Below are positions 1 to 42,564 of a stretch of DNA of 64,000 nucleotides, piece by piece. The notes under the pieces are model-generated. The model saw only the letters and a list, made by a program, of their open reading frames with translations, was not told where the DNA came from and ran no database searches. Where the stretch lies: assembly GCA_002695025.1 (NCBI GenBank), contig NZNV01000007.1:1-64000 (forward strand). The letters run 5' to 3'. Position 1 is the stretch's first letter, and every line of letters begins with the position of its first letter. The DNA comes from Owenweeksia sp. (GTDB lineage: Bacteria; Bacteroidota; Bacteroidia; Flavobacteriales; Schleiferiaceae). The position numbers and the translations under genes are program-made.

Positions 1-90
<90 letters not shown>

Positions 91-1247: not shown

Positions 1248-1287
1248 ATTCCCAAAAATACTATCTAAACTAAAATGTCCTTAACGA

Positions 1288-4167: not shown

Positions 4168-5382
4168 TTAATTATCACTGGCGGCCACCTTCTCAAAGTC
4201 AAAGAGAAGGGTGAAGCGCAAGGTGTTTTCAAGCGGGCTTTTTACCAAAGCTGAGGCGGGAATAAGGTAAGCAAAGTCCATTCCGAATACGTTATAACGC
4301 AAGCCCAGGCCAATGGTGAAATACTTACGTCCCCCTTTTTCAGTATCCTCATACTGATATCCTCCACGGAAAGCAAAGCGGTCATCATACCAGAACTCTA
4401 CCCCGGTGTTGATCACGATTTCCTCCAGCTCTTCGCGGAAACCTCCGGGGGCATCATTAAAGGACTGAAAAATTCCCTGGAAGGCGTTGACATTATCATC
4501 TCTTCCGGCAATCACCTCATCAGGAACACCGTTTCCGTCTTCATCACCGTCTTCACGAACGGGAGGCGTAGGCACCAAAAGCTTATTCACATCCACCATA
4601 AAAGACATACGGTTATACCTGTCAAAGCGAAGGTTGTAGGCTCCACCGATCCTAAGGTTGGTAGGGATAAAATCGGAAGATGCATCATTGGAATAGGAAA
4701 TCTTGCCTCCAACATTCGAAATATTCAAACCGGCTGCAAAAGATTGACGCATTCCTCCTTCCATATTATACTCACGGCTGGTAAAATAATAGCCGATATC
4801 CGTAGCCACCGTTTGCCCAGGTTTGGTATTGCTACCCAAGCCCTGGTTACCGGCTGTAAGGTTACTATATATATAGCGTAAACCCACGGCCAAAGACATC
4901 GTTTGACTAAGCTTAAGAGCGTAGGCAGCATTTAACGTCATTTCATAGGGAAAAGCGCTGCCCAGGTCATCATTTTGTTCACTTTTAAAGTTGATCTCCC
5001 CTAGTGAGAAGTAACGCATGGCCAAAGCGGCTGCCTGATTATCACCAATCTTAACGGCCCCGGAAAGATAGGCTAGGTTAATATCGTTGACCAGCTTATT
5101 CAGCCAAGGGGTATACGAAATGGACAAAGCCCTGGTTCCGTCTTCCAGAAAAGCCAGTTTGGCAGGGTTCCAGTAAATGGAGTTGATATCCGGTTGAGAA
5201 GCAACACCCACGTCTCCCATACCTCCGGCCCGTGCATCAGGTGAAATGGCAATAATGGGCACGGCAGTAGTAATACTGCGCAGAGATTCGAAATAAGCGT
5301 TTTCGGTTTCAATATTTTCAAACTGCGCTTTAGCAGTAATACTTAATAAGAAAATGAAAGAAAGGTAAAGTAGCTTCTTCAT
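4168..5382 (-). CDS. porV: Type IX secretion outer-membrane protein PorV (LptO)
   Basis: A 404-residue outer-membrane beta-barrel of the FadL-like fold. PorV carries T9SS cargo from the translocon to the attachment complex containing the PorU sortase. A signal peptide ends near residue 20 (TAKAQ). The family-typical stretch SPDARAGGMGDVGVAS follows, then IYWNPAKLAF, and the chain ends in barrel strands with repeated aromatic-Gly patterns. It lies 53 bases downstream of porU and 7 bases upstream of the cdd start. The order gldJ-porU-porV is the one known from Flavobacterium johnsoniae, which supports the call strongly. Confidence 0.95.
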   Translation of the reverse strand: MKKLLYLSFIFLLSITAKAQFENIETENAYFESLRSITTAVPIIAISPDARAGGMGDVGVASQPDINSIYWNPAKLAFLEDGTRALSISYTPWLNKLVNDINLAYLSGAVKIGDNQAAALAMRYFSLGEINFKSEQNDDLGSAFPYEMTLNAAYALKLSQTMSLAVGLRYIYSNLTAGNQGLGSNTKPGQTVATDIGYYFTSREYNMEGGMRQSFAAGLNISNVGGKISYSNDASSDFIPTNLRIGGAYNLRFDRYNRMSFMVDVNKLLVPTPPVREDGDEDGNGVPDEVIAGRDDNVNAFQGIFQSFNDAPGGFREELEEIVINTGVEFWYDDRFAFRGGYQYEDTEKGGRKYFTIGLGLRYNVFGMDFAYLIPASALVKSPLENTLRFTLLFDFEKVAASDN

Positions 5383-5435: not shown

Positions 5436-8400
5436 TCAACGTAAGATAACCAGTTTTTCGTATTTCTCGGCCAAAACATTATCAGCCTGGGTCCTCACTT
5501 TAACCCGGTAAACGTAAACTCCCTTTCCAATTTTGTCACCGTAGTCATCCAGCCCATTCCAGGCTATACCGGTTACCCGGTTACCATTAGGCACTTTGGT
5601 GGTATTAATGGTCTTTACCAGTTTCCCTGATACGGTAAAAACCTGTATTTGTATATCCATAGGCTGGTTGGCCCGGTTGTGTTCAAACTGAAACTCGGTG
5701 TAGGTGGTAAACGGATTAGGATAATTAAGAACGTGCTTAAGCGCCAGGTCCTCATCATCGGTTACAATAAATTCCGTTTCGGCCTCGGAGAAATTATTGT
5801 ATACATCAAACACCTTTAATTTAAGAGTATGCTCACCCTCTTCCAGATCGAAGAACGGATAACGCACTGATCCGGACTGGTAACTATCAAGATCTGCTTC
5901 ATAGTATTCGTTCACCACATAGGACTGATCAGTTTGATTGTCCAATACAGCAACCAGATCATGCCCGATGCCTGTACCTACAGTATTTACCCCCGATGAA
6001 TCGGATATAACCGCATACAGTTCAGGGTTGTCATTCGTTATGCCGCCTCTTACAAAAGACTCATCATTAATATACAGTTTCACCTCCGGGCCGGTATTAT
6101 CAGCAGGGGCTTTATCATTAAAGCCTCCTACCACAATGGTATCGAACACACCAGCCGCGTCCACATCATTATTGGTGGCATAGTAGCTGATCTTACCAAA
6201 CCCGTATTGATAGGCAATGTCCAGTGGCACCAGGAACTCTACATTAAAGTCTCCGTTTATCACATTTACCTTACCACGATATATTAAACTATTCTGCAAC
6301 GAAAAATTCTGAGGGGCAGGCAGTACTTTATCATTATTGAGGGTTTGCCGCAAGGTGGGTTTATCAAAAACTGAAATATTCAAAACACCATTAAAGTCAT
6401 CCATTTTCTGATCATTGAGATCATTGATCTGCCCCTTCATGGTAATCTTGCTGAGCGCCTCCAAAGTGTCCAGATTTCCAGCGGCTACCGGTTTTCCATT
6501 GATCTCATTGGTCTGCACCCTAAAATACGGAATGGCCAACCTCAGGGAAGGGTCACCGAAAAGAGAGAACTTAAGGCGGGTGGGGTTATTTCTCAGACCG
6601 GTTCCGTTCTTAGCATCCTTAATGATCTCCCCGAGACGTTTAGGTAGATTATTGGGGCGAGTGAGAAGGCTGTCAAAAATATTCTGATTGATCTCACTGG
6701 CCGTTTCCACATCCACCACCCGGGTAGTGGAAACCAACGAAATAGCACCCCCATCAGGATTTAACAGTAGCTGCTCCCCTGCCGATACACGTTTGGGATC
6801 ATCAAAACGGGTAAACTCGCAGGTAATGGTAAGAAAGAGCGGCATTGCATCGTAATTGGTCCAGTTATTAATATCCGAAAGCTGCAGGAACTTTTCTGAA
6901 GCCAGACCTATTTCGCCCCCGTGACCAATGTAGTTTGTAACCAGGTTACCCTGCTGGATCTTGCGGAACATATCCTTACTTGCTTCGGGATAGGATTCAC
7001 TTCCGGAGGTGGTTACCTGTTTATAGGCATCTATATATATCTTATCTACGTTGAAGGCATTGGAAGACTGCAATGCAGCCTGCTCAAGGGAATTGGAAAT
7101 ATTCACAAACTTCCTTTCCCAGCCACTGGGATCGTCCAGGTCATCCGCCATCAGCAATATTTTATTCCGCCAATCCCCAAAGCGGTTATTACCGGTGGCA
7201 TAGTGAATTACCTTATCCACAAAACCCTGGGCCTGGCCCAGTGAGCCACATGGAACCCTTCCGATGCCGATATCCAATAATGCCGTTATCAGGTTGCTCC
7301 CCTCCGAAGGGTCCAGGTAACCGTAGTAATCGTCACTGATACTGGAGGCCTGGAGATTAAATGCCTCATAATCCCCGGGGCGCAGCCAAACCGGAACAAA
7401 ATTATTGTTATTGGTAAGCCGGTCCCGGTAATCATAACTGGCATCACCCATAAGGCACAAGTATTTAAGATCCGTACCTGATCCGTTGCTGCGTGTATAC
7501 AACATACGTACAAAGTCGCGGATAGCCGTTATATCCTGCCCTCCAGAACTGAATTCGTTAAACACCTCATTGGTAGTAACCACCCCTACTTCCATTCCGT
7601 CATTCGACTCGTGGAATTCCGCCAGACGTTCTGCGGCCGGTAAAAAATCCTTGTGGGTTACAATAACCATCTCCATGGGACTCATGGCATGTAAATTCTG
7701 GTTTTCCACCTTTCCTACACTGGTCGGAGCCGGGAAGTCATTGCCCTTAACAGCCACCATTTCCCGCAGCGAGTCCGTGGCAATACGTATTGAAAGATCA
7801 GTGCCATTTAACTGGCCATCTATACCAAAGGCCTGGTTGATATCCGTAACGTCCCAAACCTCTGTCTGGGCATTGGCGTTGGCTATCCTGAATTCCGTTA
7901 CATTACCACTTTGTACACTATTGATATCCCTGAATAACAAAGCGTTGTTCCGATAAATAAGATTTCTCTTCACCTGAACCTCAATGTAATCCAGCCAGGC
8001 CACACCAGTTGGGTTCAGACTGTTATCATAGCGGAGGTTGAGCGAGAAATTATCCGCGGCACTGGTAAAAGAGCTTTCATCCGCTCCTATGGTTACATAG
8101 GGTTGGTTTTCTCCGGACTGGTAAGGATCAAAGGCAATGGTCATGACCGTATTACCGGCCTGTTTTACTTCCATGAAAGTACCAGCCGTACTGGAACGCG
8201 CCACGGCCCGTACCAGGATATTCACGGGTACGGATCGCACCAGATCGGGAAAGTTAAAACCGTAATTATTATCCAGGTCAAAGTCGAAAACATCGCCTAC
8301 CCATACTCTTCCCGCACCCACCAGGTTTTCCAGGTCATCCTCTTTAAATTGGTAGTCATCATAGGTAGTGACTACGGCATCTGGGGTGGCTGAACTGCCG

Positions 8401-35093: not shown

Positions 35094-35109
35094 CAGGTAG
35101 TACTACCTG
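35094..35109. promoter_or_regulatory. Operator-like palindrome 1A (CAGGTAGTACTACCTG)
   Basis: A perfect 16-base palindrome, 24 bases upstream of a near-consensus -7 box TATCTTTA (35133-35140) and 58 bases before the ATG at 35168. A second copy (15 of 16 identical) stands at 37981-37996, in front of the lipase gene. The two copies bracket the operon that encodes a NarL-type regulator, so that regulator is the natural candidate to bind them. Confidence 0.7.
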
Positions 35110-35167
35110 TTTCATTTCAAACCACAGACCCCTATCTTTAGACTGTTTAAAAACCAATCCAAACACC

Positions 35168-35866
35168 ATGACAACAAACATCATCACAGGGAACACCATT
35201 ACCAGGGAAGAAGCCATTGAGCAGATCAATAACTGGCAGGAGTATCGCAATAATTTTGCCCTGGTAAAGCAACTCTTGATTGACAGTGGTTACAGTTTTG
35301 TGATAAGCCCAAACCTGAACCCTGAAAAATTTCAAAACCAAAAGGCACACGCCTACTTTGGCGTGCACCGCCATGTTGAAGATGCCAAAGGCCTTATTTT
35401 ACGACTTAGCCTTCTGTTGATTCCGGAAGCAGAGGACGTGCCCGATGTGGAAGAACCTTATATATACTGCGCGCCCTTTTCACGCCAGGGTTTTGTAGCA
35501 CCTCAGCGGGATGCGTGTGACCCTTCAGAAGAAGACCTGGTTCAATTGGAGGAAAACTGGGCGGATAGTGGTGAGAATTGGTTGTTTTTTATGGTAAACA
35601 GTGAAGACGGCATGACCCTGGTATCCGATGTGCCCTTTGCCGATATTGATATATCTCCGGAAAATGAAAATGGGCTCTACGTTTTCTTTGGTTTGCGTGA
35701 TGAAACCGATGAAGATATTCACAGCCAGCTTTCCTTACTTTTTTACGATGGCAACTCCCACAATTTCGTTCACCTGGACGGGGCCGATTTTACAACGCCC
35801 AAACCTCCCTTCGGTACCGATCAGGCGGATCGTTACAGTCTTTTATCCTCCTATTTTGACCAGTGA
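35168..35866 (+). CDS. Hypothetical acidic cytosolic protein, first gene of two-component operon 1
   Basis: A 232-residue protein with no signal peptide, membrane segment or motif that I recognise. It is acidic and rich in aromatic residues, with several Asp/Glu clusters (EEDLVQLEENWADSGENW; DISPENENG). It starts an apparent operon: its stop overlaps the GTG start of the membrane protein by four bases (GTGA), and the kinase and regulator follow with overlaps. Upstream lies palindrome 1A with a promoter box. It may be a modulator or ligand-responsive partner of the sensor, but nothing in the sequence proves that. Confidence 0.75.
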   Translation: MTTNIITGNTITREEAIEQINNWQEYRNNFALVKQLLIDSGYSFVISPNLNPEKFQNQKAHAYFGVHRHVEDAKGLILRLSLLLIPEAEDVPDVEEPYIYCAPFSRQGFVAPQRDACDPSEEDLVQLEENWADSGENWLFFMVNSEDGMTLVSDVPFADIDISPENENGLYVFFGLRDETDEDIHSQLSLLFYDGNSHNFVHLDGADFTTPKPPFGTDQADRYSLLSSYFDQ

Positions 35867-36555
35867 AACCGGCCGACCTAATTGAGGGTATCGCACTGGC
35901 AGACCTTGCCATGACCTGGGCCGGAGTACTGAGCTGCCTCTTGATATGGAAATGGTTGATCTCCTCCCTTAAATGGTTGTGGGGCTACCTTCTGTCCGTG
36001 GGGATCATAGAATTGACAGCAAAGCTCTACGTGTATGAATGGCTGGAGGGAAGCAACCTATATCTTTTTCATATTTATACGGTTCTTGAATTTGCTCTTC
36101 TGGCCTGGATGTATACCCGTATCTTTTCGCGTAGAATGAGCAAGGTGCTAAAGGTATTTTTGCTATTGGCTTTCTTTTCGGTAGCCGCCTATTCCATTGC
36201 CCACCTGGCTCTAAACAATTGGTCTCCCGAAACTTTCCAGACCTACCACAAACTTCTTGTAAATGGAACGTTGGCGGGCTTAGCCCTCACTTTTTTTATC
36301 CAAAGCCTCAAGGAGCCTACGCGCTATCTCGACCATTTTCACGCTCTGGGCTATGCCAACTCGGGTATATTACTCTATTTCATCGGAAGTTTTATCATAT
36401 TCCTTATTATGAACCAAATGGTTAGCAGTGACCTTTCAAAGGTTATGTACCTTTGGATCATTCATGCTTTGCTTACTTTTATCTTCCACCTCACCTGTAT
36501 TATTGCCCTATGGCAGAAGGACAGTCGCCTAACGAAGATTTCACCTTATGGATGA
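35863..36555 (+). CDS. Multi-pass membrane protein, putative split sensor of system 1
   Basis: 230 residues with about seven hydrophobic segments, starting at a GTG overlapping the previous stop. It is clearly related to the membrane protein of system 2 (41027-41671): shared patterns are FHxYxxxE (LFHIYTVLEF versus FFHLYIAVES), SGxxLYFxG (NSGILLYFIG versus SSGLVLYFGG) and WxIHxxL (LWIIHALLTF versus IWTIHSVLNI) followed by AL at the end. Because the kinase next door has only one membrane helix and no sensor domain, this protein is inferred to be its sensory half. The coding end overlaps the kinase start by 46 bases. Confidence 0.8.
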   Translation: MKPADLIEGIALADLAMTWAGVLSCLLIWKWLISSLKWLWGYLLSVGIIELTAKLYVYEWLEGSNLYLFHIYTVLEFALLAWMYTRIFSRRMSKVLKVFLLLAFFSVAAYSIAHLALNNWSPETFQTYHKLLVNGTLAGLALTFFIQSLKEPTRYLDHFHALGYANSGILLYFIGSFIIFLIMNQMVSSDLSKVMYLWIIHALLTFIFHLTCIIALWQKDSRLTKISPYG

Positions 36556-37280
36556 CCGTAGCTGTATTGGCCATGACCACTCTGGCCGTGCTGGTTATTG
36601 TAATTTTCAGGCTGGCCATCCGCAGGGTAATGCAGGAACGGGAACGAATGCGGCAGGCTGAACTGACACATCAGCAAAAGCTTTTATACAACAGTATTAA
36701 TATCCAGGAAAGGGAGCGCCAGCGTATTGCTGCCAACCTGCATGATGAGCTTTCATCACGCCTTACCATACTGAAGCTGAATCTTCACCAGTTAAAGCAG
36801 GGAGATACGGAGGTTACCGGACAAATGGTTCCGTTGCTTGATGAGACCCTGCGCCTGTCGCGAAATATTTCCCACGACCTCTACCCTCCCCTCCTGGCGG
36901 AATTGGGCCTGGTGGAAACCATCAAAGATTACCTGCTTCCCTTAAAAGGAAAAGTTGAAACCGAATTCCATACTAACCAAAATGGAGAGCCTCCGCAAGG
37001 TGAGATATCCTTACAATTGTTTCGGATTATACAGGAATTGATACAGAACGTACTGAAACATGCTCAAGCTTCAGTCATCTCCGTACAACTCAGGATCACC
37101 ACCACATATACAAGCTTGCTGGTGAAAGATAATGGTTGTGGATTTAAGCTTTCAAATACCAAAGGCGGGCTGGGGCTGGGAAATATTGAATCACGTGTTC
37201 AGTTGCTTAATGGCCTTTACCGCATAAAGAGTTCCCTTGGTAAGGGAACCTCAACTCTAATTCTGATACCCCATGGATAA
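36510..37280 (+). CDS. HisKA_3-type sensor histidine kinase, system 1
   Basis: 256 residues. One membrane helix (about 13-34), a short coiled segment, then a HisKA_3 dimerisation/phosphoacceptor domain with His78 in RIAANLHDELSSRL, and a HATPase_c domain (ELIQNVLKHA N-box, KDNGCGF and GLGLGNIESR G-boxes). The start is MAEGQSPNEDF; the frame is open to 36453. No periplasmic or PAS sensing domain exists, which points to the neighbouring membrane protein as sensor. It overlaps the regulator gene by 8 bases. Confidence 0.92.
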   Translation: MAEGQSPNEDFTLWMTVAVLAMTTLAVLVIVIFRLAIRRVMQERERMRQAELTHQQKLLYNSINIQERERQRIAANLHDELSSRLTILKLNLHQLKQGDTEVTGQMVPLLDETLRLSRNISHDLYPPLLAELGLVETIKDYLLPLKGKVETEFHTNQNGEPPQGEISLQLFRIIQELIQNVLKHAQASVISVQLRITTTYTSLLVKDNGCGFKLSNTKGGLGLGNIESRVQLLNGLYRIKSSLGKGTSTLILIPHG

Positions 37281-37965
37281 GATCAAGATCGTAATGGCTG
37301 ATGATGAAGAACTTTTCCTTAATGGCCTAAAAGCCCTTCTTGAAAAGGACAAGAAGCTGCAGATCCTCTTTACCGCCAATGATGGTGAAGAATTATTGGA
37401 AAAGCTGGAAGGTGCTGTTGAAAAACCGCACATTGCCGTGGTTGACCTCCGTATGAAGAAGAAAGACGGCATTGCTACCACCGAACAACTGAAGAAGCTT
37501 TGCCCCGAACTGAAGATCATCATTCTCTCCAGCCACTACCGTGAAACCTTTGTGGGGTATATGCTAAAGCTGGGGGTTAATGCCTTTTTACCGAAAGATA
37601 TAAATCCTGATCTATTACAGGAAGTCATAGCTCAGGTTCAGGCCAGGGGCCTTTATTTTACTGATGATCAGTTAAAAGGCCTGCAGGAGCAGTTAAGCTC
37701 GGGCTCCGGAATGAAAGCCCCCCCTACTACGGACAGCCACGAGCTGACCGGGCGGGAAACGGAAATCCTGCAGCTTATTTGTGAGCAATATACCAATGCC
37801 GAGATCGCGGAAAAACTCTTTATCAGCATTCGTACGGTGGAAGGCCACCGCAATAATTTACTCTTGAAGACTGAAGCTAAAAACACCGCTGGCCTGGTAC
37901 TTTTTGCCCTCGCTCATAACCTGATTGACTGGAACGCTAAACTATTGGAATTCGGCATCCGATAA
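37273..37965 (+). CDS. NarL/FixJ-type response regulator, system 1
   Basis: A 230-residue DNA-binding regulator. The receiver domain has the acidic pocket MADDEE and the phospho-acceptor Asp58 (VVDLRM). The LuxR-type HTH (about 158-222) contains LTGRETEILQLICEQYTNAE and IAEKLFISIRTVEGHRNNLL. It is the last gene of the operon, ending 15 bases before palindrome 1B. Palindromes 1A and 1B suggest it controls its own operon and the lipase. Confidence 0.93.
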   Translation: MDKIKIVMADDEELFLNGLKALLEKDKKLQILFTANDGEELLEKLEGAVEKPHIAVVDLRMKKKDGIATTEQLKKLCPELKIIILSSHYRETFVGYMLKLGVNAFLPKDINPDLLQEVIAQVQARGLYFTDDQLKGLQEQLSSGSGMKAPPTTDSHELTGRETEILQLICEQYTNAEIAEKLFISIRTVEGHRNNLLLKTEAKNTAGLVLFALAHNLIDWNAKLLEFGIR

Positions 37966-37980
37966 ACTTTCTACCCCAAC

Positions 37981-37996
37981 CGGGTAGTACTACCTG
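37981..37996. promoter_or_regulatory. Operator-like palindrome 1B (CGGGTAGTACTACCTG)
   Basis: The inner 12 bases GGTAGTACTACC (37983-37994) are a perfect palindrome, and 15 of 16 bases match copy 1A. It lies between the regulator stop (37965) and the lipase (ATG at 38144). No full -7 box is seen after it; TAGTTGTG at 38012 has one mismatch. Confidence 0.7.
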
Positions 37997-38143
37997 ATTT
38001 TAAGAAAAGGGTAGTTGTGCGCTAACTCTCTCCCTCCTTCTTTTTCACTTTTGGTAACGCCTTTACTCCTAAGGCAGGCCGAAGCCGAAAAGCCTTCCCA
38101 ATTGGAAAACCGAGTAGGTGAAACCAACAAAATTCAGTGCATT

Positions 38144-39433
38144 ATGTACTCTAAACCGCAAATTATCCACTGCCTTTCCCTGGCCAGCAATTCCGCACTC
38201 GGGCTTAAGTTTTCTTCCTTTAGCGCCCTCCAAAACTATGTTCAAAAAGTAAACACCGATGTTCTGGGCGACTTAACCTGCCAGAGTTTTATCGGCAGCG
38301 ACTGGAAACCCGTATGGGGCCCCTATGTGTATTCGCAGGATCAGACCTCTTCTTTCGCACATGCTGATAACGTAATGAGCCTCCTCCACAGCCCTTCTCA
38401 AAACCTTTTGGTCATTGCTATTGCCGGCACCAACAGCGTTTCCATGTTTGGCTGGATGGATGAGGATTTTGATGTAAGTACCACCAAAGCCTGGAAAGAT
38501 ATTTCAGGGCCATCGAATTCAGGAGCCGTATCTACAGGAACCTACAATGGCCTTGACATTTTGTTGAACAAGATGCCGGAACCTCAAACCAAAGGAAGCT
38601 CCATTGTGGATGCCCTGGGAAATTTCCTGGCGTCCAATTCTGACATTCAGAATGCTGAATTATCGGTTGCCGGTCACAGTTTAGGCGGGGCTCTTTCACC
38701 CGTTCTGGCGTTATACCTGCAAAATAACCAGGACCAATGGAACAGCAAAGGACAGGTGACTACCATTTCTACCTACCCTACGGCCGGTGCCACCCCCGGC
38801 ACCAAGGATTTTGCCGACTATTACGGAAACCTCATCCAGGATGGTAAAATTGACTACCACAGTGAATACAATACCTTTGATGTGGTGCCCCATGGGTACC
38901 AACCGGATACCATAGATAAGATCCCCACCCTTTATTCTCCCGAAAATGGTGGCCAAATAGATTCTCCATCCGATGCCAATCCCCAAAACCCGGTCATAGG
39001 TATGATTGCAACCGGATTATCCCTTGATGCTTACAAAGCAGGTATACAATGGGGACGTATTCCAGGAAATCCTTACCGTCAGGTTCAACCCTGGACCGCC
39101 CTGGCCAATTGTGCGTTCAACCAGGATACGGATAATGAAGTGCAGAAGAAGCTGGCTTTTGTCAGCCCCCTTATTTTGCCTCCAGGTCTACAGGATTACA
39201 GTGACACGTTCAAAGAAACCGTACGCTATCTCTATCAGGCGCTTACCCAGCATACCACGGAGTACAATCGCCTGCTTGACATTGAAGGATTTATGAATCG
39301 CTACAACACCATCCGGAGTAACGATAAGCCCTCTTCTTCACAGGAAGTAGACCTGGCCGCTGAAATGGTCAAACGGGCCACCGGAGTAGATTTAACTAAT
39401 CTTCCTCAGGCAAACGAGGTGAAAACAGTCTAA
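38144..39433 (+). CDS. Class 3 lipase-like alpha/beta hydrolase
   Basis: 429 residues with the nucleophile elbow GHSLGGA (Ser179) preceded by the oxyanion-side strand VIAIAGTNS (90-98), as in the fungal-type lipase_3 fold. The Asp and His of the triad probably lie in the later YNTFDVVPHGY region and beyond. The start MYSKPQIIHC has no signal peptide. The frame is open back to a TTG at 38015 (43 extra codons) whose weakly hydrophobic stretch is not a convincing export signal. It is preceded by palindrome 1B, so it is a likely target of system 1. A terminator follows at 39454. Confidence 0.82.
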   Translation: MYSKPQIIHCLSLASNSALGLKFSSFSALQNYVQKVNTDVLGDLTCQSFIGSDWKPVWGPYVYSQDQTSSFAHADNVMSLLHSPSQNLLVIAIAGTNSVSMFGWMDEDFDVSTTKAWKDISGPSNSGAVSTGTYNGLDILLNKMPEPQTKGSSIVDALGNFLASNSDIQNAELSVAGHSLGGALSPVLALYLQNNQDQWNSKGQVTTISTYPTAGATPGTKDFADYYGNLIQDGKIDYHSEYNTFDVVPHGYQPDTIDKIPTLYSPENGGQIDSPSDANPQNPVIGMIATGLSLDAYKAGIQWGRIPGNPYRQVQPWTALANCAFNQDTDNEVQKKLAFVSPLILPPGLQDYSDTFKETVRYLYQALTQHTTEYNRLLDIEGFMNRYNTIRSNDKPSSSQEVDLAAEMVKRATGVDLTNLPQANEVKTV

Positions 39434-39597: not shown

Positions 39598-40251
39598 TTA
39601 TTTCTTAACCAATCCCTTTTGCACGGCAAAAATGGCCAGTTCCACCGTGTTTTTGGTTCCCGTTTTTTCGGTGAGGCGTTTGCGGTAACCTTCTATGGTT
39701 CGCGGACTTAAAAACAAGCGGTCGGCTACCGCCTGGGTGGTAAGTCCATCGCACAGTAATTTCAGTACTTCCAATTCCCGTTCACTGAACTTTACTATCC
39801 CGGCAAAATCAGGGACTTCTATTTTCATAAAACCCTGGGTGGCATTGGTCATAAGGGCTTTATAGCTTGCATCGGAAGCATAAAACCCCTTTTCATAAAC
39901 CGCTTCCACACACCTTTCCAATTCTTCGGGTTCAGCATCTTTAAGAAGGTAGCCATTGGCTCCATGTTGCATTAGGTGTATAATGAACTGTTCATCCCGG
40001 TGCATCGTAAGGATCACCACCCTAACATCCTGAAACTTTTCCTTCAGTACCGCGAGGGTTTCCACCCCGTCCATTTCCGGCATTTCCAAATCCAGCAATA
40101 CTACATCGGCCGGATTTTCCGATAACGCTTTTACCAGGTCTTTGCCATTGGATGCTTCGCTCACCAGTTGCAGATTTTCTGCTTCGTTAATGATCATGGC
40201 AATTCCTCTCCTGAAGAGGCTGTGATCATCGGCAATAGCTATCCTTATCAT
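39598..40251 (-). CDS. NarL/FixJ-type response regulator, system 2
   Basis: 217 residues from the ATG at 40251, which overlaps the kinase stop by four bases (ATGA). The frame opens 12 codons earlier. Acidic pocket IADDH, phospho-acceptor Asp54 (LLDLEM), and LuxR-type HTH (about 148-210) with FSERELEVLKLLCDGLTTQ and VADRLFLSPRTIEGYRKRL. It is the distal gene of the lipoprotein-membrane protein-kinase-regulator operon; the CGGGTTTTCCCG dyads upstream of the operon are its most likely sites. Confidence 0.93.
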   Translation of the reverse strand: MIRIAIADDHSLFRRGIAMIINEAENLQLVSEASNGKDLVKALSENPADVVLLDLEMPEMDGVETLAVLKEKFQDVRVVILTMHRDEQFIIHLMQHGANGYLLKDAEPEELERCVEAVYEKGFYASDASYKALMTNATQGFMKIEVPDFAGIVKFSERELEVLKLLCDGLTTQAVADRLFLSPRTIEGYRKRLTEKTGTKNTVELAIFAVQKGLVKK

Positions 40252-41051
40252 AGCGGGATATGGTTTGAAACAGGAATGTGTATCCATACATCCAGGCCTT
40301 CACCGGGGGTAGAATCAAAACGAACTTCTCCATTCATCATCAGCACCCGGCTGCGAATATTGCGGAGCCCTGCTCCTTTATATTTTCTCTGGCTGTCAAA
40401 ACCTTTCCCATCATCGCTATACTGCAATAGCAGACCATCGCTGCTTTGTTTTAAAACTATCCGGATTATTTGAGCACCGGCATGCTTTAATGAGTTGGTC
40501 AGTAATTCCTTTACCATACGGTACAGGGCCACAGCCGTTTCCTTGGAAAGACCGGAAAGTTCTTCACCCTGAAACTGTAATTGAATATCAGGTCCCGAAG
40601 TTTGCGAAATTGTTTGGATCAGATCCTTGAGAGCAGGAATAAGCCCCCATTTTTCAAGTGAGGAAGGCATAAGATTAGCGGCTACCGACCTTACATTGTG
40701 AATGCTATCATCCAATAACTTACGGGCCTCGTCCACAAACTCCTGGTATAAAGAATCATGCGGAACCTTACGCGCAAATTGTTGCAAGTGCAACTTCACC
40801 GCCAGCAGCGTTACCCCAATATCATCGTGAAGATCCTTGGCAATACGGCTGCGCTCTTCTTCCTGGGTGGCAATGCTACTTTTTAAAAGATCAATCTGGT
40901 AGCGGTGTTCTGCGGCCTTTAACCGGCTTTGCTGCGCGAGAAGTTTACGTTGATACACCACCACAAAAAGCACCAGGCATACCACCAACAGCAAAGTGAT
41001 AACCGTGCTGGTAAAAAAAAGGGTGGTTACTTCTGATGTGGATCCCGGCAT
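40248..41051 (-). CDS. HisKA_3-type sensor histidine kinase, system 2
   Basis: 267 residues: one membrane helix (about 12-33), HisKA_3 with His75 in RIAKDLHDDIG, and HATPase_c with ELLTNSLKHA, SDDGKGF and GAGLRNIRSR. Same size and domain plan as the system 1 kinase, and again no sensing domain. It overlaps the membrane protein gene upstream by 25 bases and the regulator by 4, so the three are translationally linked. Confidence 0.92.
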   Translation of the reverse strand: MPGSTSEVTTLFFTSTVITLLLVVCLVLFVVVYQRKLLAQQSRLKAAEHRYQIDLLKSSIATQEEERSRIAKDLHDDIGVTLLAVKLHLQQFARKVPHDSLYQEFVDEARKLLDDSIHNVRSVAANLMPSSLEKWGLIPALKDLIQTISQTSGPDIQLQFQGEELSGLSKETAVALYRMVKELLTNSLKHAGAQIIRIVLKQSSDGLLLQYSDDGKGFDSQRKYKGAGLRNIRSRVLMMNGEVRFDSTPGEGLDVWIHIPVSNHIPL

Positions 41052-41671
41052 AGTAAGGCAATAGCGTACATGGTATATAATATTATGTTAAGTACGGAAT
41101 GTATAGTCCATATCTGGATGAACACTTCACGTTCCTGCTCCCCCACGTAATTACTAAATATAAATAACATGAGGTTACCCCCAAAGTAAAGCACCAGCCC
41201 GCTACTCAACCAAAACATAAAGGATTGTTCCAGCTTTACAGCTGATAATTTTTCCAGTGTAAAGTAAAAATACAGTAAGCACAAGCCGATAATCACCACA
41301 CTTTCCAGGGCCCGTATATTGGATGGGAATTCAGTAAACGGCTGCACCCATAAGCCGTTTATAAGCACCAAACCTACCATTATTAAACCTCCGGCTTTAA
41401 GCCAACGTTCTTTGAGTCTCCAGCTTAGTTCATACCGGAACAGCCAGAGCAGGAAAAAGCTTTCCACCGCTATGTAAAGATGGAAGAACGGAAGGTTGTT
41501 AATATGGAAAAAGTAGATCAGCCCTTTAGCCAGTAATTGATTGGTGGCCACAATGGCCAGCATCAATACCAACCAACGTTGACTGCCCGAAAGATTCCGG
41601 TACCGAAAAACTGCTACAACCAGTGGCAGTAGTACCACAAACACGCCCATATTTAGTATCAGGTGGCTCAA
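41027..41671 (-). CDS. Multi-pass membrane protein, putative split sensor of system 2
   Basis: 214 residues, about seven hydrophobic segments, homologous to the system 1 membrane protein (motifs listed there). The start used is TTG at 41671, 6 bases after the lipoprotein stop; an ATG at 41650 (MGVFVVLLPL) is an alternative that gives a slightly shorter first helix. The paired occurrence with a sensor-less kinase in both systems supports a split-receptor role, which is inference. Confidence 0.8.
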   Translation of the reverse strand: MSHLILNMGVFVVLLPLVVAVFRYRNLSGSQRWLVLMLAIVATNQLLAKGLIYFFHINNLPFFHLYIAVESFFLLWLFRYELSWRLKERWLKAGGLIMVGLVLINGLWVQPFTEFPSNIRALESVVIIGLCLLYFYFTLEKLSAVKLEQSFMFWLSSGLVLYFGGNLMLFIFSNYVGEQEREVFIQIWTIHSVLNIILYTMYAIALLCRDPHQK

Positions 41672-41677
41672 CCGCTC

Positions 41678-42475
41678 TTATAAATTTTCAAGTGCACAGG
41701 TCATCAACTCCGAATCATTATCACAGAGTTGTGGACAGGGCATGGCAAAATCCATATACGTACGGTCAGCAGGGTCATCTTCAGCGTTCAGCACCAGGTC
41801 CAGTGCCATATGCCCGTTAATGTTGGCATCAACAGGAGTGCCGTACACCACATTTCCGATGGAAACGGAGTGTACCGCAAATGAGAATCTCAACGTATTG
41901 GACACCAGTAGGTCTTCCACTATTTCTCTTTTAAAGGTATACCCATAGATCGGCACGAATACCGAATCCGGTGACCCACCAAAACGATTAGCCCAGCTGC
42001 AGCACATCCCCTTGGCGGCAGCCACACTCATGAAGACCCCGCCTTCTGAAGACAACACGGGTAATTTCTCACCCAGTACATCTTTACATTGCTTCATATT
42101 CACCAAAAGCAGTTCAGGAATTACAGGCTCTACCATTTCGGCCGGCAGGGCAAAGTACACCCGTACAGCATCGCAGTCTTCACATTGGTTGAGCAATTTT
42201 TCTACTTTTTTACTGGTGAAACTCCGGCCACCTATCTCCTTACGCCTTTGATCGTTCAGCTCTTTACTACAGGTTCCCAGCAAATAGTACCAGGAGTTTT
42301 CCCAGATACCCACGGTTTCACTGTACACCTCAGAGTCAAAATACACACAGTCCGTATCGGCCTGCGGTTTCTTTTTGCGGGATTGGGTTTGTTCCCAGGT
42401 TTGACCGACCGGGTTTTTAGGGGCATCGCAGGATACCATTAGGATCATCAGAATTACAAAAGGAAAGGTTCTCAT
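41678..42475 (-). CDS. Lipoprotein of unknown function, first gene of two-component operon 2
   Basis: 265 residues. MRTFPFVILMILMVSC gives a lipoprotein signal with Cys16. The frame is open to 42586, but that part has no signal character. The mature part is cysteine-rich (about a dozen Cys, with CxxC-like pairs such as QCEDCD and GMCCSW), which suggests disulfides in the periplasm. No family is recognised. As the first gene of the operon it may sense a ligand for the downstream membrane protein and kinase. A -7 box TATTTTTG (42510-42503, minus) precedes it. Confidence 0.75.
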   Translation of the reverse strand: MRTFPFVILMILMVSCDAPKNPVGQTWEQTQSRKKKPQADTDCVYFDSEVYSETVGIWENSWYYLLGTCSKELNDQRRKEIGGRSFTSKKVEKLLNQCEDCDAVRVYFALPAEMVEPVIPELLLVNMKQCKDVLGEKLPVLSSEGGVFMSVAAAKGMCCSWANRFGGSPDSVFVPIYGYTFKREIVEDLLVSNTLRFSFAVHSVSIGNVVYGTPVDANINGHMALDLVLNAEDDPADRTYMDFAMPCPQLCDNDSELMTCALENL

Positions 42476-42524
42476 AATATGTTTTTTTACAGCGGTAAAA
42501 TTCAAAAATACCGCAAACCGGGCA

Positions 42525-42564
42525 TAGCGGGTTTTCCCGCTATGGTAAACGGGTTTTCCCGCTA
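42525..42564. promoter_or_regulatory. Tandem operator-like dyads 2A and 2B (CGGGTTTTCCCG)
   Basis: TAGCGGG-TTTT-CCCGCTA at 42525-42542 is a perfect 7+4+7 dyad. A second copy with the same core CGGGTTTTCCCG is at 42550-42561 and ends CTA. The centres are 22 bases apart, two helical turns. They lie between the divergent starts of operon 2 (42475, minus) and the small gene at 42663 (plus). Near-consensus -7 boxes exist on both strands (TATTTTTG at 42510-42503; TAACTTTA at 42563-42570). Confidence 0.72.

What the first reader, a model, noticed from the sequence alone, without database searches (positions are those of the whole stretch)
35094..37996. Identical 16-base palindromes bracket two-component operon 1 and its lipase
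CAGGTAGTACTACCTG before the first gene and CGGGTAGTACTACCTG before the lipase agree in 15 of 16 positions, and the inner 12 bases are a perfect palindrome in both. Nothing else explains them. They are the expected footprint of the dimeric NarL-type regulator encoded between them, and they define a small regulon: the operon itself plus a lipase.
Basis: partly seen in the sequence, partly recalled or inferred. Interest (0 to 1): 0.7.

Follow-up and report, generated by a model that had tools for sequence, protein, structure and literature searches.

The report
Paired operators of a lipase-controlling two-component system
The two matching 16-base palindromes look like genuine switch sites, conserved in two related bacteria, through which a sensor system turns on itself, a lipase and a few other genes, most of which also carry a shared RNA element of unknown function in their messages.

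Summary
GGTAGTACTACC occurs at 3 places in the 4.46-Mb genome, all intergenic: before operon 1, before the lipase, and before a 174-aa gene on another contig. The orthologous operon in two related genomes carries the same dyad, CRGGTA-N4-TACYYG, 72-73 bp before gene 1; the N4 centre varies and the arms are kept. The only class-3 lipase found in each of those genomes also has the dyad upstream, although it is not beside the operon there. Nine promoters in three genomes share one rigid layout: a proximal site 40-41 bp before the TTTG of a Bacteroidota -7 box (centre about -42.5) and, in the six target promoters, another site 27 bp further up. Five of those six also carry the orphan DUF805b RNA just before the start codon. 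A PI-PLC-like gene belongs to the set. Best explanation: class-II activation by the NarL-type regulator encoded between the palindromes. Binding is inferred, not shown; a paralogous regulator with a near-identical recognition helix could share the sites in this genome. The geometry resembles the ComA box. New member of a known kind; the tie to DUF805b RNA is the surprising part.

The parts
35094..35109 (+). Operator of operon 1: CAGGTA-GTAC-TACCTG, promoter-proximal position
   Evidence: same place in G002 (CGGGTAGAAGTACCCG) and G020 (CAGGTAGTTCTACTCG), 72-73 bp before the ATG
35133..35140 (+). Predicted -7 box TATCTTTA of operon 1
   Evidence: TTTA 41 bp after GGTA; 40 bp in the orthologs G002 (TACCTTTA) and G020 (TACCTTTC); consensus from PMC6847099
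35168..35866 (+). Operon 1 gene 1: 232-aa protein of unknown function, no TM segment by hydropathy
   Evidence: orthologs 45-50% identical; 3 of 88 family genomes; no Pfam or NCBIfam match
35863..36555 (+). Operon 1 gene 2: 230-aa polytopic membrane protein
   Evidence: 5 TM-like segments by hydropathy; no Pfam match above cut-off
36510..37280 (+). Operon 1 gene 3: short histidine kinase (HisKA_3 + HATPase_c), one TM segment, no separate sensor domain seen
37273..37965 (+). Operon 1 gene 4: NarL/FixJ-type response regulator (Response_reg + GerE)
   Evidence: helix-turn-helix stretch identical in three orthologs; best solved relatives VraR, NarL, DevR
37981..37996 (+). Distal operator (site A) of the lipase: CGGGTA-GTAC-TACCTG
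   Evidence: identical GGTAGTACTACC before the G002 lipase
38010..38021 (+). Proximal, weaker operator (site B) of the lipase: GGTAGTTGTGCG, 27 bp after site A
   Evidence: same 27-bp offset in all six target promoters
38046..38053 (+). Predicted -7 box CACTTTTG of the lipase
   Evidence: TTTG 40 bp after site B, as in 8 of 9 promoters
38075..38120 (+). DUF805b RNA (Rfam RF02914) in the lipase 5'UTR, with an 11-nt insertion
   Evidence: 21.9 bits, below the gathering score 35.6; E 0.00041 in a 261-base search, 0.1 in the whole window
38144..39433 (+). Class-3 lipase, 429 aa, GHSLGG nucleophile motif, no signal-peptide-like start by hydropathy
   Evidence: Lipase_3 E 6e-11; 32-34% identical to the G002 and G020 lipases; hydropathy

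Best explanation
The palindromes are operators of the NarL/FixJ-type response regulator at 37273-37965. A phosphorylated dimer recognises RGGTA-N4-TACCY. In operon 1 a strong dyad sits at about -43 (SHOWN: position relative to a conserved -7 box; INFERRED: transcription start and binding) and gives positive autoregulation. In the target genes (lipase here; 174-aa gene on C7; PI-PLC-like gene on C24) a strong dyad sits one step up at about -69.5 and a weaker one at about -42.5, so that a dimer bound firmly to the distal site would help a second one onto the proximal site, which replaces the missing -33 element (INFERRED). The expected behaviour is that low activator levels switch on the operon first and the lipid-attacking enzymes later. 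In most targets the message then carries a DUF805b RNA ending 17-23 nt before the start codon (SHOWN), which probably adds a step of control at translation (INFERRED).
For: Three exact 12-mers in 4.46 Mb, all intergenic. Dyad kept at the same distance before the orthologous operon in G002 and G020 while its N4 centre changes, GTAC, GAAG, GTTC. Dyad before the only Lipase_3 found in G002 and in G020, not linked to the operon there. The composite A-27-B-40-TTTG gave 30 places with up to 2 mismatches in four genomes: 6 lie outside ORFs of 120 aa or more, 24 overlap one, and the 6 are exactly the proposed targets. Best -7 match at offset 40 in 8 of 9 promoters and 41 in 1. GerE stretch identical in three orthologs that are 62-81% identical overall. 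In five other genomes without the operon that hold the 12-mer once each, 4 of 5 copies lie inside ORFs. ComA, another NarL/FixJ-type regulator, binds 6-bp arms with an optimal 4-nt spacer plus a weaker element downstream (passages of PMC4797271).
Against: No binding, expression or start-site data exist. The composite pattern was drawn from the three G000 promoters, so only the G002 and G020 cases test it independently. The G020 sites are weak on their own: shuffles reach the same score in 128, 182 and 242 of 2000. The G002 lipase site B has 2 of 4 GGTA letters changed. Seven of 11 loose dyads in G000 are inside ORFs. A C34 paralog (51% identical) has TVEGHKNNLLLKT against TVEGHRNNLLLKT, so it could be the real or a second binder in G000. 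Eight of the nine -7 boxes have one mismatch to TAnnTTTG. Repression rather than activation is not excluded by sequence.
Confidence: 0.82

Rival explanations
1. The dyads are real operators, but the main binder is the paralogous NarL-type regulator on contig C34 or another paralog; several regulators share one operator.
For: C34 regulator is 51% identical with a recognition helix differing by one residue (R to K). The genome has 14 matches to the regulator at E below 1e-10.
Against: G002 and G020 keep the sites but show no second regulator like the C34 one: their next best matches are 38% and 34%. Operon 1 carries the site next to its own regulator in all three genomes. No GGTA-N4-TACC with 0 mismatches was seen in the first 9000 bases of C34.
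Confidence: 0.12
2. The sites repress: the dimer blocks polymerase until the signal arrives.
For: The proximal site overlaps the region where a -33 element would lie.
Against: All six target promoters have a distal site at about -69.5 and 8 of 9 promoters an imperfect -7 box, the usual layout for activators; the phasing is fixed at 40-41 bp from the -7 box in nine promoters.
Confidence: 0.12
3. The palindromes act as RNA hairpins (terminator or 5'UTR stem) rather than as DNA operators.
For: The 16-mer can pair as a 6-bp stem with a 4-nt loop; CGGGTAGTACTACCTGATTTT follows the regulator's stop codon by 15 bases.
Against: In all nine promoters the dyad lies upstream of the predicted -7 box, so it is not transcribed from that promoter. 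The operon 1 site lies between divergently arranged genes and the C7 site likewise.
Confidence: 0.03
4. Chance or low-complexity coincidence.
For: The loose N4 dyad also occurs inside genes (7 of 11).
Against: Exact 12-mer 3 against less than 1 expected; conservation before orthologous operons and lipases in two other genomes.
Confidence: 0.01

Closest known systems
ComA box of Bacillus subtilis (NarL/FixJ-type regulator)
   Same: Hexamer arms in inverted repeat with a 4-nt spacer, and a second, more degenerate element on the promoter side in target genes (passages of PMC4797271).
   Different: Arm sequence (TTGCGG there, CRGGTA here); ComA's second element is a direct repeat with a 5-nt spacer, here it fits an imperfect inverted repeat better (by eye); different phylum and promoter type.
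DosR/DevR, NarL and VraR operators
   Same: Same regulator family; DosR box GGGAC-N4-GTCCC and NarL half-site TACYY are recalled, from no call.
   Different: Letters differ, and the half-site orientation differs from the NarL 7-2-7 site (recalled); no comparison of sites was run.
Bacteroidota sigma-A promoters, TAnnTTTG -7 box
   Same: All nine promoters have a match with at most one mismatch at a fixed place; TTTG at -8 to -5 (PMC6847099).
   Different: No clear -33 TTTG element; an operator occupies its place (inference).
DUF805b RNA (Rfam RF02914)
   Same: Five of six target promoters carry it in the 5'UTR.
   Different: 3 of those 5 score below Rfam's gathering cut-off; an association with a two-component regulon was not found in print.

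Membership tests
NarL/FixJ-type response regulator and its operator | Receiver plus GerE/LuxR DNA-binding domain | tested here: met
   PF00072 E 1.5e-19, PF00196 E 3.5e-14
NarL/FixJ-type response regulator and its operator | Cognate HisKA_3 kinase in the same operon | tested here: met
   36510-37280, HisKA_3 25.6 bits (cut-off 24) and HATPase_c
NarL/FixJ-type response regulator and its operator | Dyad operator at the regulator's own promoter, conserved with it | tested here: met
   three of three genomes with the operon
NarL/FixJ-type response regulator and its operator | Direct binding of the regulator to the dyad | not testable with these tools
   needs EMSA, footprint or ChIP
Bacteroidota sigma-A promoter | -7 box TAnnTTTG | tested here: met
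   0 mismatches in 1 of 9 and 1 mismatch in 8 of 9 promoters
Bacteroidota sigma-A promoter | -33 TTTG/TTG element | not tested
   not scored; none obvious by eye
DUF805b RNA (RF02914) | Score at or above Rfam gathering cut-off 35.6 | tested here: inconclusive
   2 of 5 targets above (46.7, 45.0), 3 of 5 below (31.6, 31.1, 21.9); 0 of 20 control loci gave a DUF805b match
Class-3 lipase (PF01764) | Pfam match above cut-off and nucleophile motif | tested here: met
   42.9 bits, cut-off 22; GHSLGG. G020 ortholog is just below cut-off
PI-PLC X domain (C24 526-aa protein) | Match to solved PI-PLCs | tested here: inconclusive
   single sequence: no PLC match in Pfam or PDB; profile of three sequences: PI-PLC chains at E 1.8e-6

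The most novel reading that the evidence does not exclude
The two-component system and the orphan DUF805b RNA form one two-layer control circuit for a class of leaderless, lipid-attacking or surface-active proteins: the dyad pair sets when the genes are transcribed, and DUF805b RNA, placed 17-23 nt before the start codon, acts as a translation element that stands in for the Shine-Dalgarno signal that these bacteria lack. The spread of the same promoter-plus-RNA cassette to unrelated genes would mean that new genes are recruited to the regulon by acquiring this cassette.
Probability: 0.3. Interest if true: 0.7.

Novelty: new member of a known kind. Interest (0 to 1): 0.5.

Why it matters
Operator sequences of NarL-type regulators in Bacteroidota outside the model species are seldom known (recalled). 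Here one can be written down from comparative genomics alone, with its spacing to the promoter, its target genes and a testable order of activation. It also ties an orphan RNA family to one defined regulon, which gives a way to ask what DUF805b RNA does.

Tried and rejected
RNA hairpin or terminator reading: rejected because the dyads lie upstream of the predicted -7 boxes and, at operon 1 and C7, between divergent genes. The loose dyad CRGGTA-N4-TACYYG alone as a regulon finder: rejected as too noisy, 7 of 11 inside ORFs in G000; the composite with site B and TTTG was used instead. A direct-repeat reading of site B after the ComA example was considered by eye; the inverted form fits better. 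Structure of the 232-aa first gene: AlphaFold with three sequences gave mean pLDDT 39, useless; no fold search was made. Orthologs of the PI-PLC-like and 174-aa genes in 59 relatives: none for the first, only four weak partial matches at E 0.003-0.01 for the second, so their promoters could not be compared. Pfam and NCBIfam gave nothing useful for gene 1, gene 2, the 174-aa protein or the C24 and op2 first genes. Paper searches for DUF805b, DUF805 with structured RNAs, DUF805 with riboswitch, and a Bacteroidetes LuxR-type regulator with palindrome and lipase found no paper.
Full report
WHAT IS THERE. CAGGTAGTACTACCTG lies at 35094-35109 and CGGGTAGTACTACCTG at 37981-37996. Between them is a four-gene set on the + strand: a 232-aa protein without known relatives in Pfam, a 230-aa polytopic membrane protein, a short histidine kinase, and a NarL/FixJ-type response regulator. 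A class-3 lipase follows. The window is the first 64 kb of contig 10 of a 4.46-Mb genome. Named relatives of the regulator lie in records titled Cryomorphaceae bacterium and Owenweeksia sp., so this is a member of the Bacteroidota; the species itself was not identified.

MORE THAN CHANCE. The 12-mer GGTAGTACTACC occurs at 3 places in the genome: the two in the window and one on contig 7. Markov models of order 1 to 4 trained on the window expect 0.13, 0.27, 0.54 and 0.99 places. All three are outside ORFs. With one mismatch allowed there are 21 places against 16 for the reversed control, so only the exact core or the spaced dyad carries signal. CRGGTA-N4-TACYYG gives 11 places against 0 for the control, 4 intergenic and 7 inside ORFs. 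In G002, G001 and G020 the same loose pattern gave as many or nearly as many control matches as real ones in two of three genomes. The fourth intergenic place in G000, on contig 24, has the centre CTTC and stands before a 526-aa gene.

PHYLOGENETIC FOOTPRINT. Gene 1 of the operon was found in 3 of 60 relatives and in 3 of the 88 family genomes held: G000 (own), G002 and G020. A scan of the genome collection for the regulator returned three relatives, at 81%, 62% and 34%; the first two are in the same operon context. Both carry the dyad at -72 and -73 from the first ATG, against -72 here, as CGGGTAGAAGTACCCG and CAGGTAGTTCTACTCG. Arms are kept (one arm letter is off in G020) and the four central bases change. 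The DNA-binding stretch of the regulator, QLICEQYTNAEIAEKLFISIRTVEGHRNNLLLKT, is identical in the three.

LIPASE. The family PF01764 was sought in 7 genomes: one match each in G000, G002, G020, G005 and G018, none in G001 and G019; the G020 match is just under the family cut-off. The G002 lipase (30% identical by BLASTP; 32% in alignment) has the only exact GGTAGTACTACC of its genome 146 bp before its ATG. The G020 lipase (34%) has CGTAGTTCTACC at 148 bp. Neither is next to the operon. The G005 lipase, in a genome without the operon, has nothing better than 2 mismatches (842 of 2000 shuffles do as well). The G018 match was not examined for sites.

PROMOTER GRAMMAR. In the three non-operon G000 promoters a second GGTA follows the first by exactly 27 bp and TTTG follows that by exactly 40 bp. 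This composite, with up to 2 mismatches, was searched in G000, G002, G020 and G001: 30 places. The reversed control gave similar totals, so the raw count is no evidence; the location is. Six of the 30 do not overlap an ORF of 120 aa or more, and 24 do. The six are the three G000 promoters that defined the pattern, the G002 lipase, the G020 lipase, and a G020 gene for a 137-aa protein. In operon 1 and its two orthologs the single strong dyad occupies the proximal position: TTT lies 41, 40 and 40 bp after GGTA. Over nine promoters the best match to TAnnTTTG is at offset 40 in 8 and 41 in 1. In Flavobacterium johnsoniae the TTTG of this box is at -8 to -5 (passage of PMC6847099; same box in passages of PMC9723704), which puts the proximal dyad centre at about -42.5 and the distal one at about -69.5. 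That is where class-II activators bind (established knowledge, recalled). The start sites themselves are predicted, not mapped.

TARGETS. Besides the lipase they are a 174-aa protein of unknown kind (C7), a 526-aa protein on C24, and in G020 a 137-aa protein. The 526-aa protein has no PLC match alone, but a profile made with two plasmid-borne relatives finds solved PI-specific phospholipases C at E 1.8e-6. None of the lipases, the PI-PLC-like protein or the two small proteins has a signal-peptide-like start by hydropathy, which is a crude test. The PI-PLC-like gene has no relative, and the 174-aa gene no clear one, in 59 relatives searched, so these promoters may sit before recently acquired genes (inference).

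SHARED RNA. Rfam scans put DUF805b RNA (RF02914) in the 5'UTR of five of the six targets: window lipase 21.9 bits, C7 gene 31.6, G002 lipase 45.0, G020 lipase 31.1, G020 137-aa 46.7, with a gathering score of 35.6. Only two are above the cut-off; the alignment of ten copies shows GAAAAGC and GAGTA in all. The PI-PLC-like gene has none, but the two genes before it on C24 do, as do two small genes next to the C34 paralogous system and a lipoprotein gene on C24. No exact or loose dyad was found before these, so the RNA is wider than the regulon. Twenty loci whose dyad-like or composite match was mostly inside ORFs gave 0 DUF805b matches. The RNA ends 17-23 nt before the ATG in the cases aligned. 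No held paper has the name DUF805b; the paper that I recall as its source is not held.

WHO BINDS. The operon 1 regulator is the simplest choice: it is next to the site in three of three genomes and its reading helix is invariant. The caveat is a C34 regulator, 51% identical, with TVEGHKNNLLLKT in place of TVEGHRNNLLLKT. It was not seen in G002 or G020, whose next best matches are 38% and 34%, so the operon 1 regulator should suffice there.

COMPARISON. ComA of Bacillus subtilis recognises hexamers in inverted repeat with an optimal 4-nt spacer and a degenerate second element downstream, which contributes to activation (passages of PMC4797271). The arrangement here works like that. It is a different site, in another phylum, with another sigma factor. 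By sequence the regulator is nearest to VraR, NarL and DevR among solved structures.

VERDICT. It is a new member of a known kind. The point that would surprise a specialist is the shared DUF805b RNA; its role is open.

Noticed in passing
42523-42544 (- strand), second copy 42550-42563: The neighbouring paralogous two-component operon (39598-42475, - strand) has its own dyad, CATAGCGGGAAAACCCGCTATG, also with a 4-nt centre (AAAA), a second copy 22 bp upstream and TATTTTTG downstream: probably the paralog's own operator with another specificity.
   Followed up: partly
L091 and L123 (contigs C24 and C34); window 39598-42475: At least four paralogous sets of membrane protein, short HisKA_3-type kinase and NarL-type regulator exist in this genome, three of them with a first gene ending in a similar DF-rich, proline-rich tail; small proteins lie beside them.
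   Followed up: partly
L091:693-727(-), 4933-4968, 5472-5504; L123:729-763(-), 1251-1285(-): DUF805b RNA stands before several small-protein genes and one lipoprotein gene that have no dyad of this kind, so the RNA is shared beyond this regulon.
   Followed up: partly
36510-37280 with 35863-36555: The kinase has a single TM segment and no sensor domain, and its gene overlaps that of a polytopic membrane protein: sensing may be split between the two proteins.
   Followed up: no
L072:1685-2098: The G020 137-aa protein before which the composite was found has only sub-threshold Pfam matches (Big_1, PUD1_2).
   Followed up: no
1-89 (- strand): The window starts inside a 16S rRNA gene (RF00177, cut at its 3' side).
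   Followed up: no
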